DNA of 36,108 nucleotides from Candidatus Thermoplasmatota archaeon (lineage in GTDB: Archaea; Thermoplasmatota; Thermoplasmata; UBA10834). This document shows positions 2,223-18,841 of this stretch, piece after piece. The position numbers and the translations under genes were made by a program. Positions within the stretch are counted from its first letter, which is position 1; the number at the start of each line of letters is the position of its first letter. The stretch is taken from assembly GCA_018814355.1 (NCBI GenBank), contig JAHIZT010000080.1, positions 1 through 36,108 of the forward strand. The letters run 5' to 3'. Below the pieces are notes generated by a model, which worked only from the letters and a program-made list of their open reading frames with translations, was not told where the DNA came from and ran no database searches.

Positions 2223-5200
2223 GTCCCCGCCTCCTCCTTCTCAAGGTCCTTCTTGAGGCACGCCTCGATCATGGTCAGTATCTGCTCGGTCTTGAAATGC
2301 TTCGGGCTGATTGCTCTCGCACAGCATTCGACCGCGCACGAGCCACACCCTTTGCAAAGCGCTTCGTTGATCCTTGACTTGAAGATTCCCGGGGAGACCT
2401 CGACGATGCTGGGCGCGCCGTACTCGCAGATCTCCTCGCACCGGCCGCACGTGATGCACTTGTCCTCATCGACGACGCTCACGACGCCATCGGCCTCGAT
2501 GAACTCCTTGGACAGGACGGTGTTGACCCTCGCCGCTGCTGCCAGCGCCTGCGATATGCTCTCGCCTATCAGCCTGGGAGAGTGCGCGAGCCCGCACAGG
2601 AATATCCCGTCCGTCGCGAAGTCAACGGGCCTGAGCTTCATGTGTGCCTCCAGGAAGTACCCTTCCTTGTTCAGGGGCACCTTGAGCAGCTTCGCCAGGT
2701 CCTTGTTGTCCGGGTTCGGGTGCGTCGCCGCGTTCAGGACCAGGTAGTCGGCGACTATCTTGACGCCCTGCTCTATGAACTGCTCCGTCACCTCGACCTC
2801 CAGCTGGTCGCCCTTCGCGGTGACCTTCGGGGGCGACTCGGGATCGTACCTCAGGAATGTGACGCCCAGCCGTGCGGCCTCGTTGTAGTGCTCCTCCCTG
2901 AACCCGTAGGTCCTGATGTCCCTGTAGAGGATGTACACGCTGGTGTCCGGGTGATCCTGCTTGATCTTGATCGCGTTCGCCATGGCCGTTGAGCAGCATA
3001 GACGGGAACAGTTCGGGTGCTCCTCGTTCCTCGAACCGATGCACTGGATGATGACGACGCTCTTCGCCTTCAGCTTCCCGTGGGCAAGCATCGTCCCCAG
3101 CTCGGTCTGCTTGATGACCCTCTTGTGTTTGCCGTGGAGGTACTCCGTCGGCTCGTACTCAATGGCCCCGCTGGCGACGACTATCGCGCCGTGCTTGATC
3201 TTCTCGCCGCTCTTGAGTGTGGATTCGAAGTTGCCGATGTATCCCTTGAGCTCGGCTACGTTGTCGTTGAGATGGATTTTGACGTTCTCGTTCTCCTGGA
3301 TCTCCTTCTTCAGGCGCTTGAGCAGGTCCTGCGGATCGATCCCGGACAGCGTTTGGTAGATGCTCCTCAGATGGCCCCCCAGCTCCTTGTCCTTATCGAC
3401 CAGGTGGACCTCGTATCCCGCATTGGCGATCTCCAGTGCCGCCGCCATGCCGCTGAGCCCTCCGCCTATGACCAGCGCGGACGGGGTCACGGGTATCTTC
3501 GGCTGCGGGAGCGGCTCCAGCATCGCCGCTTTCGCCACCGACATGCGGACCAGGTCCTTGGCCTTCTGCGTGGCCTTCTCCGGCTCCAGCCTGTGCACCC
3601 ACGAGCATTGGTCCCTGATGTTGGCCATCTCGAACAGGTACTTGTTCAGGCCGGCCTCCCTGCAGGTGTTCTGGAACAGCGGCTCGTGCGTTCTCGGGGT
3701 GCAGCTCGCGACCACGACCCTGTTCAGGTCGTGCTTCTCGATCATCTCCTTGATCTTCTTCTGCGTGTCGCCCGAGCACGTGTACAGGTTCCTCTCGGTG
3801 TAGACCACGTTCGGCAGCTTTGATGCGTACTCTAGGACCTCCGGCACGTTCACCACGGAGCCGATGTTGATCCCGCAGTGGCACACGAACACGCCGATCC
3901 GTGGTTCCTTCTTCGACACGTCCTTCTCCGCTGGATACTCCTTCTTCTTGACGAGCGTTCCCCGCTCCTTGGACAGCATCGCCGCGACCTTTCCGGCGGC
4001 GCCGCTGGCCTGCGCGATCGAGTCCGGGATGTCCTTCGGGCCAGAGAATGCCCCGCAAACGAAAATCCCTGGCACCGAAGTCTCCACGGGAGCTAGATCG
4101 TCTGTCTCGCAGAATCCGAACTTGTTGAGCTGGATGCCGATCGTCTTTGCCATGTCCGCAGCGGACGCGGGCGGCCCCGCGCCTGCCGCGAGGACCACGA
4201 GATCGAACTCCTCGTCCTCCAGCTCGGCCCCCGCGTGATATGTGACTATGAGGTTGTTCGTCTTCGGGTCCTCCGTCACCTTCGGGACCCGGTTGTTCCT
4301 GGCGATCCTGACGCCGTACTCGTTCTCGGCCCTCATCAGGTACTCCTCGAACTCTTTTCCGAAGGCCCTGGTGTCCATGAAGAATATCGCGGTCTTCAGC
4401 CCGGGCACATGCTCTTGGCCTATGACCGCCTGCTTGATCGCCGCCATGCAGCAGTAGGATGAGCAGTAGGTGTTGCCGGTCTGCGCGTCCCTCGAGCCGA
4501 CGCACTGTATGAACGCGATCCTCCTGGGCACATCGCCGTCCGAGGGCCTGATTATGTGGCCCTCAGTTGGACCAGAGGCGCTGAGCATCCTCTCGAACTC
4601 GATGTTCGTGAGAACGTTCGGGAACACGCCGAGCCCGTACTCGACCTTCTTCGTGGCGTCGAACACGCTGAACCCCGGGCTGAGGATGATCGACCCCACC
4701 TCGATCACCTCCTCCTTGTCCGGCTCCATCGAGTACTGGATGGCCTTCGCTTCGCAGAACTTCTCGCACTCGCCGCAACCGATGCACAGCCCGCGAGAGA
4801 TGGTGTACACGAGGGGCACAGCCTGGGGGAAGGGCACGTAGATGGCCCTCGCAGGCGCCATGTCCCTGTCGAATGCGTTGACGCCCTCGATCGGACAGTG
4901 CTCGGCGCAGACACCGCAACCTGTGCACTTGTCCTCGAGTACGTATCTGGAATGCTTAGTAATCGTGACCTTGAAGTCGCCCGCCTTTCCCTCGACCTTC
5001 TTGAGCTCGGCGTGCGTCAGCATCGTGATGTTCTCGTGCCTGCCAGTCGCGACGAGCTTCGGAGAGACGATGCACATGGCGCAGTCGTTGGTCGGGAAGG
5101 TCTTGTCCAGTTGGGCCATGGTGCCGCCTATGCTTGGCTCCGATTCGAGTATGTAGACCTTGTATCCGGAGTCGGCCAGGTCCAGCGCGGCCTGCATGCC

Positions 5201-5254
5201 CGCAGGCCCTCCGCCGATGACGAGCGCGGCTCCAACGGTCCTGTCATCACTCAT
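2219..5254 (-). CDS. hdrA: Double HdrA-type flavoprotein (HdrA-HdrA fusion)
   Basis: HdrA is the FAD-carrying, electron-bifurcating subunit of heterodisulfide reductase complexes. This 1011-residue protein holds two HdrA units. Unit one (1-445) begins directly at the Rossmann motif GGGPAG (14-19) and keeps the inserted ferredoxin domain (C110, C113, C116, C120; C157, C160, C163, C167). Residues 451-590 match the HdrA N-terminal domain (CHCG at 458-461, C493, C518, C550). Unit two follows with GGGLSG at 597-602, has no inserted ferredoxin domain, and ends in two [4Fe-4S] motifs (C933, C936, C939, C943; C967, C970, C973, C977). The halves are thus complementary rather than redundant. Start: ATG overlapping the end of mvhD, with GGAGG upstream. 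It may bifurcate at one or both flavins; the sequence does not settle this. Confidence 0.92.
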
Positions 5255-18355: not shown

Positions 18356-18527
18356 TGGGGGCAGGGGGATTTGAACCCCCATCGACGGGTTTCCACCAGG
18401 CGGAGAGCGACTCCGCCCGTTTCGAACATGGGTCATCGCTCCAGTTATTCATCACTGGTCAGCAAACCCAACGGAAATCATTCCCATAACTGGAGCCCGT
18501 AAGGATACCAGACTACCCCATACCCCC
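18356..18527 (-). tRNA. tRNA-Trp (anticodon CCA) with a 99-nt intron
   Basis: The 5' exon is 18490-18527 and the 3' exon 18356-18390; the mature tRNA has 73 nt. The acceptor stem GGGGGTA pairs with TGCCCCC (one T-G wobble). The anticodon stem ACGGG/CCCGT closes a loop CTCCAGA with anticodon CCA. The T stem GGGGG/CCCCC closes the loop TTCAAAT. A73 is the discriminator and no CCA end is encoded. The D stem is imperfect. The intron (18391-18489) lies at the canonical 37/38 position. Its junction helix is a relaxed rather than perfect bulge-helix-bulge. The intron contains a box C/D guide RNA and a second hairpin (GGCGGAG/CTCCGCC). The 5' end is only 21 bp after the eL41 stop codon and no separate promoter is visible. 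Confidence 0.93.
18428..18487 (-). ncRNA. Box C/D guide RNA inside the tRNA-Trp intron
   Basis: A terminal stem ATGGG/CCCAT (18483-18487 and 18428-18432) brackets box C ATGATTT (18475-18481), box D' CTGA (18459-18462), box C' GTGATGA (18449-18455) and box D ATGA (18433-18436). The guide before box D is ATAACTGGAGC, an exact 11-bp match to the anticodon region across the exon-intron junction; the N+5 rule places methylation on C34. The guide before D' pairs with only six bases (AAACCC) of the 3' exon region, and N+5 points to position 39. Tryptophan tRNA introns of this kind, targeting 34 and 39, are known in Euryarchaeota. Boxes C and D deviate from RTGATGA and CTGA. Confidence 0.8.
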
Positions 18528-18548: not shown

Positions 18549-18656
18549 CTACTTCTTACGCATCTTCTGGGCTCTCTTCCGCCTTCGCATCTTCTTCTTG
18601 CGCCATTTCCAGCGCTGCTTCCCGCGTTTCTTCCAGGCTCTTGAGCTCCGTTTCAT
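18549..18656 (-). CDS. rpl41e: Ribosomal protein eL41
   Basis: This 35-residue protein is almost entirely Lys, Arg, Trp and Met (MKRSSRAWKKRG at the start, then KWRKKKMRRRKRAQKM). It matches the single-helix large-subunit protein eL41, including the KWRKK-MRR-KR core, and is about the length of other archaeal copies. An AAGGGAG site lies nine bases before the ATG and a strong TATA box about 45 bp upstream. It sits between tRNA-Arg and tRNA-Trp on the same strand. The gene is easily missed because of its size. Confidence 0.9.
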   Translation of the reverse strand: MKRSSRAWKKRGKQRWKWRKKKMRRRKRAQKMRKK

Positions 18657-18723: not shown

Positions 18724-18841
18724 CGGGCCGGTCGGGAGTTTCGGGCGTTTTGAACGCCATTCGAACCCGAGACCACTGGCTTTCTTCTGCTCAATCAGAG
18801 CTTAGAAGGCCAGTGCTATATCCTGGCTAAGCCACCGGCCC
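18724..18841 (-). tRNA. tRNA-Arg (anticodon UCU) with two introns, one in the T loop
   Basis: Exons are 18803-18841, 18760-18781 and 18724-18737; the mature tRNA has 75 nt with acceptor GGGCCGG/CCGGCCC and G73. Intron 1 (21 nt, 18782-18802) is at 37/38; the CTTC of the anticodon loop pairs with intron GAAG, flanked by bulges TAA and AAA. Intron 2 (22 nt, 18738-18759) splits the T loop at 59/60 with a textbook bulge-helix-bulge: T stem TCGGG/CCCGA, bulge ACT, central helix TTCG/CGAA, bulge AAT, and intron stem GGCGTT/AACGCC. Removing both restores stem TCGGG/CCCGA and the seven-base loop TTCGAAT. A20, the arginine identity base, is present. No CCA end is encoded. Confidence 0.93.

What the first reader, a model, noticed from the sequence alone, without database searches (positions are those of the whole stretch)
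18724..18841. tRNA-Arg(UCU) with a second intron in the T loop
Besides the usual intron at 37/38, a 22-nt intron lies at 59/60. It forms a textbook bulge-helix-bulge: T stem, 3-nt bulge ACT, 4-bp helix TTCG/CGAA, 3-nt bulge AAT, 6-bp intron stem. Multiple and non-canonical tRNA introns are typical of Thermoproteales and scarce in euryarchaeal lineages. Standard tRNA finders may miss or mis-score this gene. It implies a splicing endonuclease of relaxed specificity.
Basis: partly seen in the sequence, partly recalled or inferred. Interest (0 to 1): 0.72.

Follow-up and report, generated by a model that had tools for sequence, protein, structure and literature searches.

The report
T-loop intron in archaeal tRNA-Arg
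The only gene found for one arginine tRNA in this uncultured archaeon carries a second, tiny intron inside the T loop, and the same kind of intron recurs in many tRNA genes across its phylum (Thermoplasmatota), where common gene finders usually miss it.

Summary
A 118-nt tRNA-Arg(UCU) gene lies on the minus strand (18841 to 18724), with a 21-nt intron at 37/38 and a 22-nt intron at 59/60 in a strict bulge-helix-bulge (BHB). Removing the 59/60 intron on paper restores a normal tRNA; ARAGORN and Rfam (gathering cut-off) miss the intact gene. The T-loop intron is present in all 15 full-length Arg(UCU) genes read from the window's family, with strong compensatory change in its stem. The genome's Arg(CCG) and Lys(UUU) also carry one. 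A covariance model finds such introns in 69 of 218 sampled Thermoplasmatota genomes, in Arg, Lys, Asp, Gln, Gly, Glu and Ala tRNAs. Intron-free orthologues give exact empty sites, and one genome has the identical 45-nt intron in two different tRNAs.

No relaxed endonuclease is implied: the motif is strict, and the only splicing-endonuclease gene found is a fused two-repeat (alpha'2) type without the specificity loops of broad-range enzymes. Reviews call that type strict and pair non-canonical introns with loop-bearing enzymes, so this case qualifies the rule. Splicing itself is inferred, not shown by RNA data.

The parts
18724..18841 (-). tRNA-Arg(UCU) precursor gene, 118 nt, two introns; only Arg(UCU) gene found in the genome
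18803..18841 (-). 5' exon (positions 1-37, ends CTTCTA; anticodon TCT)
18782..18802 (-). canonical 37/38 intron, 21 nt (AGCTCTGATTGAGCAGAAGAA); absent from three species of the same genus
18760..18781 (-). middle exon: 3' anticodon stem, variable region, T stem 5' strand and T loop TTCGAA
18738..18759 (-). non-canonical 59/60 (T-loop) intron, 22 nt, TGGCGTTCAAAACGCCCGAAAC
18732..18770 (-). complete T arm with BHB: T stem TCGGG/CCCGA, central helix TTCG/CGAA, bulges AAT and ACT, intron stem GGCGTT/AACGCC
18724..18737 (-). 3' exon: T60, T stem 3' strand CCCGA, acceptor CCGGCCC, discriminator G

Best explanation
This is a working, apparently single-copy tRNA-Arg(UCU) gene whose precursor carries two BHB introns, at 37/38 and 59/60. 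In the precursor the T-loop bases 54-57 (TTCG) pair with the last CGAA of the intron. That makes a 4-bp helix between two 3-nt bulges, stacked on the T stem and on the intron's own hairpin. The homodimeric alpha'2 splicing endonuclease cuts after the second nucleotide of each bulge and the RNA ligase joins the exons, giving the 7-nt T loop TTCGAAT. Because almost every tRNA has TTC(A/G) at 54-57, any tRNA can host an intron ending in YGAANN. So 59/60 is a reusable intron site, used by many tRNAs across Thermoplasmatota. Shown here: gene structure, motif, conservation, covariation, empty sites, enzyme architecture. Inferred: cleavage, ligation, ligase identity, and that the mature tRNA is used.
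For: In-silico removal of the 59/60 intron, and only that, lets ARAGORN see tRNA-Arg(tct). No second Arg(UCU) gene was found in a 97%-complete genome, while AGA makes up 66 of the 344 Arg codons in ten window ORFs, so the gene should be needed. The T-loop intron is present in all 15 full-length Arg(UCU) genes read from the family (14 genomes with the window's, G015 twice) plus one from family f2, at loci flanked by an eL41-like ORF and tRNA-Trp in all but one of those tested. Covariation: 6 of 6 intron-stem pairs change on both sides; 28 double-change cells against 8.0 +/- 2.1 shuffled; 47 against 13.1 +/- 2.7 in the broader set. Exact empty sites: L023 against L020 (Arg) and L323 against L322 (Lys CUU). 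Of 118 pattern matches in named genomes, ARAGORN finds a tRNA in 15 unspliced and 106 spliced. EndA: one gene, two PF01974 domains in one ORF, catalytic Y/H/K motifs in the C-half, no insertion at the specificity-loop site compared with narrow M. jannaschii EndA.
Against: No RNA data show excision or ligation, and cleavage by this EndA has not been measured. The set of T-loop introns was collected with pattern and model searches that require the strict motif, so relaxed versions would be under-counted. The genome is a draft (135 contigs), so a second Arg(UCU) gene cannot be fully excluded.
Confidence: 0.92

Rival explanations
1. The T-loop insertion marks a dead or degenerating tRNA gene, the cell relying on another Arg(UCU) tRNA.
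For: The unspliced gene scores below tRNA cut-offs, and insertions in T arms of eukaryotic tRNA genes are mostly taken as pseudogenes (PMC4090602).
Against: No other Arg(UCU) gene found; the spliced cloverleaf is intact; insertion site and BHB are kept in every full-length family member read, with compensatory changes.
Confidence: 0.02
2. The intron is cut by a relaxed-specificity endonuclease, as in Thermoproteales.
For: Reviews link non-canonical tRNA introns to (alpha beta)2 or epsilon2 enzymes with CSL or ASL loops (PMC4090602, PMC4033280, PMC12397907). Some introns here, such as the D-loop intron of Lys(UUU), look less strict on the exon side.
Against: Strict 3-4-3 BHB at 59/60. EndA is a fused two-repeat protein colinear with A. 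fulgidus EndA, not the permuted epsilon form: ARMAN-2 aligns only as three separate, out-of-order blocks. No insertion at the specificity-loop site, and no separate beta subunit found.
Confidence: 0.08
3. The element is retained in the mature tRNA as an extended T-loop hairpin with a function of its own.
For: The hairpin is stable and its stem is conserved by covariation.
Against: What is conserved is the splice motif: constant CGAA complementary to TTCG and 3-nt bulges. Orthologues without the insertion have the exact spliced sequence. Retention would remove the T-loop/D-loop elbow common to tRNAs.
Confidence: 0.02

Closest known systems
Non-canonical BHB tRNA introns of Thermoproteales and other Crenarchaeota, including position 59/60
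   Same: Short BHB introns outside 37/38, several per gene, shared between different tRNAs; 59/60 is a listed position (PMC4090602).
   Different: Those archaea have (alpha beta)2 endonucleases with a specificity loop and often relaxed motifs (PMC4090602, PMC6379350). Here the phylum is Thermoplasmatota, the motif is strict and the enzyme is a fused alpha'2 type.
Korarchaeum cryptofilum
   Same: Alpha2 endonuclease together with non-canonical tRNA introns; described in 2014 as the only such archaeon (PMC4033280).
   Different: Its alpha2 enzyme is reported to carry the specificity loop; the EndA here has no insertion at that site.
Methanopyrus kandleri and Methanothermobacter thermautotrophicus multi-intron tRNAs
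   Same: Euryarchaeota with more than one intron in a tRNA gene (PMC4033280).
   Different: Listed there as individual euryarchaeal cases; here it is a recurrent T-loop class spread over many families of one phylum.
alpha'2 splicing endonucleases of A. fulgidus and Thermoplasma acidophilum
   Same: Fused two-repeat homodimeric type, described as narrow specificity (PMC6379350); A. fulgidus EndA aligns colinearly with the protein here.
   Different: In this phylum the full-length form (about 350-390 aa in most genomes) goes with T-loop introns; the shorter Thermoplasma-like form (290-330 aa) occurs in sampled families where none were found. This is a correlation only.

Membership tests
Archaeal BHB tRNA intron | Two 3-nt bulges separated by a 4-bp helix at the exon-intron junctions | tested here: met
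   TTCG/CGAA helix with bulges AAT and ACT; 4 of 4 central pairs form in every sequence of alignments A1 and A2
Archaeal BHB tRNA intron | Removal at the bulges yields an intact tRNA | tested here: met
   ARAGORN finds tRNA-Arg(tct) after in-silico removal; exact empty sites
Archaeal BHB tRNA intron | Genome encodes a splicing endonuclease | tested here: met
   EndA at G000:C88, two PF01974 domains in one ORF, active-site motifs present
Archaeal BHB tRNA intron | Excision and ligation seen in RNA | not testable with these tools
   No RNA data available
Relaxed-BHB intron with broad-specificity EndA, (alpha beta)2 or epsilon2 | Splice motif lacks a bulge or helix (hBH, HBh', BHL) | tested here: not met
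   Both bulges and both flanking helices present
Relaxed-BHB intron with broad-specificity EndA, (alpha beta)2 or epsilon2 | EndA has a separate beta subunit, or the alphaN-alpha-betaC order with a CSL/ASL loop | tested here: not met
   Single fused gene; ARMAN-2 aligns only as permuted blocks; M. jannaschii EndA aligns without a gap at the loop site; no loop insertion in the related EndA proteins aligned
tRNA pseudogene | Loss of cloverleaf, or a functional copy elsewhere | tested here: not met

The most novel reading that the evidence does not exclude
Position 59/60 is a phylum-wide intron hot spot in Thermoplasmatota because the universal TTCR of the T loop supplies one strand of the splice helix. 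Introns copy themselves or convert between different tRNAs there, are removed by a strict alpha'2 endonuclease, and may persist because they break up the tRNA 3' half that many integrases use as an attachment site. Non-canonical tRNA introns would then not require a relaxed enzyme.
Probability: 0.35. Interest if true: 0.72.

Novelty: new variant of a known kind. Interest (0 to 1): 0.55.

Why it matters
Reviews state that euryarchaeal tRNAs with alpha4 or alpha'2 endonucleases have single introns at the canonical position, and that non-canonical introns track relaxed, loop-bearing enzymes (PMC4090602, PMC4033280). Here a whole phylum, including methanogens, has strict-BHB introns in the T loop together with a loop-free alpha'2 enzyme, so position and motif strictness need to be separated. 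It also shows a blind spot in annotation: 'missing' tRNAs in these genomes may be hidden by such introns. For example, a 2014 study found no tRNA-Lys in Methanomassiliicoccus luminyensis and put it down to missing sequence (PMC4153887). The Lys(UUU) gene of relatives carries D-loop and T-loop introns and is invisible to ARAGORN. M. luminyensis itself was not examined, and this would not explain a missing Lys(CUU).

Tried and rejected
Pseudogene: rejected (apparently single copy, intact when spliced, conserved). Relaxed or epsilon2-type endonuclease: rejected on architecture. Sampling artefact of one genome: rejected (present across a family and in many other families). Chance hairpin: rejected (68 in 2,000,000 shuffles; covariation). 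Bacterial matches of the genome pattern scan: chance; almost none gave a tRNA after splicing, and two 'bacterial' records with real tRNAs look like mis-binned archaeal contigs. Literature searches for earlier reports of T-loop introns in Thermoplasmata found none in the open-access library; supplementary tables and GtRNAdb could not be consulted, so database predictions may already exist.

Full report
What is there. On the minus strand, 18841 to 18724 reads GGGCCGGTGGCTTAGCCAGGATATAGCACTGGCCTTCTA-[AGCTCTGATTGAGCAGAAGAA]-AGCCAGTGGTCTCGGGTTCGAA-[TGGCGTTCAAAACGCCCGAAAC]-TCCCGACCGGCCCG. Brackets mark the 21-nt intron at 37/38 and the 22-nt intron at 59/60. The spliced product is a 75-nt tRNA-Arg(UCU). 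The minimum-energy fold shows the stated T arm: T stem, TTCG/CGAA helix, 3-nt bulges AAT and ACT, and a 6-bp intron stem. Neither ARAGORN nor Rfam at its gathering cut-off reports a tRNA in the window; Rfam's tRNA model gives 14.1 bits against a cut-off of 29. Removing the 37/38 intron does not help ARAGORN; removing the 59/60 intron does. So the T-loop intron is what hides the gene.

Not chance, not a pseudogene. Keeping TTCG and shuffling the rest of the loop gives the strict motif with a stem of at least 5 bp in 68 of 2,000,000 trials. Searches of the 97%-complete genome found no other Arg(UCU) gene, and AGA is 66 of the 344 Arg codons in ten ORFs of the window.

Relatives. A search of 60 genomes recovered the gene across the family. 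All 15 full-length Arg(UCU) genes read from it, in 14 genomes including this one (G015 has two copies), and the one from G019 in another family of the order, carry the T-loop intron. Three species of the same genus (L012, L013, L014) have lost or never had the 37/38 intron but keep the T-loop intron. The flanks are conserved: of 14 relatives' loci tested (13 in the family and G019), all have the eL41-like ORF, 13 have the tRNA-Trp 5' half and 13 the PAC2-like gene. In 24 T arms the central helix is invariant but for one U-G, while all six intron-stem pairs show changes on both sides: 28 double-change cells against 8.0 +/- 2.1 in shuffles. A broader set gives 47 against 13.1 +/- 2.7.

Same genome. 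Models R1 and R2 find two more T-loop introns: Arg(CCG), also with a 37/38 intron (L098), and Lys(UUU), also with a D-loop intron (L248).

Phylum. Of 218 sampled genomes at least 88% complete, 69 have matches at E <= 0.01, in many families. None appeared among the sampled Thermoplasma-like family (f18) or family f14 genomes shown. Reading the loci fetched showed T-loop introns in Arg(UCU, CCG, UCG, CCU), Lys(UUU, CUU), Asp(GUC), Gln(CUG), Gly(UCC, GCC), Glu(CUC) and Ala(CGC), nearly all with an intact T stem and acceptor after splicing. A pattern scan of named genomes gave at least 118 records, mostly Thermoplasmata and Methanomassiliicoccales, with a few Nanoarchaeota and Woesearchaeota in Ala(UGC). 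ARAGORN sees a tRNA in 15 of these 118 unspliced and in 106 spliced. Rfam at its cut-off covers few of 20 such loci.

Gain, loss and movement. Intron-free orthologues show exact empty sites: L023 against L020 for Arg(UCU), L323 against L322 for Lys(CUU). In genome G090, tRNA-Gly(UCC) and tRNA-Arg(CCU) carry an identical 62-nt T arm, including a 45-nt intron, in otherwise different tRNAs. That is evidence for copying or conversion between tRNAs, as proposed for Thermoproteales (PMC4090602). In the window's genome the three introns differ, so any such event there is old.

Enzyme. The one splicing-endonuclease gene found (G000:C88) codes for about 351 aa with two N-terminal and two PF01974 domains. 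The catalytic motifs lie in the C-half (KYGSHFRAY, H, KKEIL). It is colinear with A. fulgidus EndA. ARMAN-2 matches only as three blocks in a different order, and M. jannaschii EndA aligns with no gap at the specificity-loop site. Of 26 related genomes, 25 have EndA matches, and in each of these the matches fall in a single ORF; the alignment shows no loop insertion in any of them. Thermoplasma-like and f14 genomes have a shorter form. Papers describe the alpha'2 type as limited to canonical BHB motifs (PMC12397907, PMC6379350). The T-loop motif is canonical in shape and unusual only in place, so no relaxed enzyme is needed.

Most likely mechanism. The T loop's TTCG pairs with the intron's terminal CGAA; EndA cuts both bulges and the ligase joins the exons, giving TTCGAAT. 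Until then the T loop cannot make its elbow contact with the D loop, so splicing may gate later maturation (inference). Why 59/60 is favoured is inferred from the near-universal TTCR, which supplies half of the helix in any tRNA.

Novelty. Position 59/60 introns are known in other archaea (PMC4090602). A phylum-wide T-loop class in Thermoplasmatota with a loop-free alpha'2 enzyme was not found in the papers available here. Published accounts say otherwise for Euryarchaeota (PMC4090602) and name Korarchaeum as the only alpha2 archaeon with non-canonical introns (PMC4033280). GtRNAdb and paper supplements could not be checked.

Noticed in passing
window 18356-18527, minus strand: tRNA-Trp(CCA) with a long intron of about 100 nt that holds box C/D-like motifs (ATGATT, CTGA, GTGATGA), as is usual for archaeal tRNA-Trp; also missed by ARAGORN and below the Rfam cut-off.
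   Followed up: partly
window 18549-18656, minus strand: 35-aa very basic ORF (MKRSSRAWKKRGKQRWKWRKKKMRRRKRAQKMRKK) between tRNA-Arg and tRNA-Trp, probably ribosomal protein eL41; conserved at this place in the relatives tested.
   Followed up: partly
L248 (own genome C113, around 5090-5230): tRNA-Lys(UUU) with a D-loop intron (about 20a/21) and a T-loop intron; the same double arrangement is found in several other families, and L267 (G033) appears to have three introns in one tRNA-Lys gene.
   Followed up: partly
L050 (own genome C53:59207-59307): tRNA-Thr(CGU) with an insertion of about 27 nt in the D loop that can form a bulge-helix-bulge; ARAGORN mis-calls it as Gly(gcc).
   Followed up: partly
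L316-L321 (six Methanomassiliicoccus / Methanomassiliicoccales genomes): tRNA-Lys(UUU) matched in all six; the two genes read in full (L316, L317) carry D-loop and T-loop introns, and ARAGORN sees none of the six. A possible reason for the tRNA-Lys reported missing from M. luminyensis (PMC4153887); that species itself was not examined.
   Followed up: partly
L256 and L257 (genome G090): Identical 45-nt T-loop intron and T stem in tRNA-Gly(UCC) and tRNA-Arg(CCU), suggesting recent copying or gene conversion between different tRNAs.
   Followed up: partly
L022 (G053) and L024 (G031): A second copy of the 5' part of tRNA-Arg(UCU) (GGGCTCGTGGCTTAGTC...) lies about 80 bp upstream of the gene in two families, followed by an inverted-repeat-like stretch.
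   Followed up: no
L107 (record titled bacterium) and L116 (record titled Atopobium): Contigs filed under bacteria carry archaeal-type tRNAs with T-loop introns; probably mis-binned or mislabelled.
   Followed up: no
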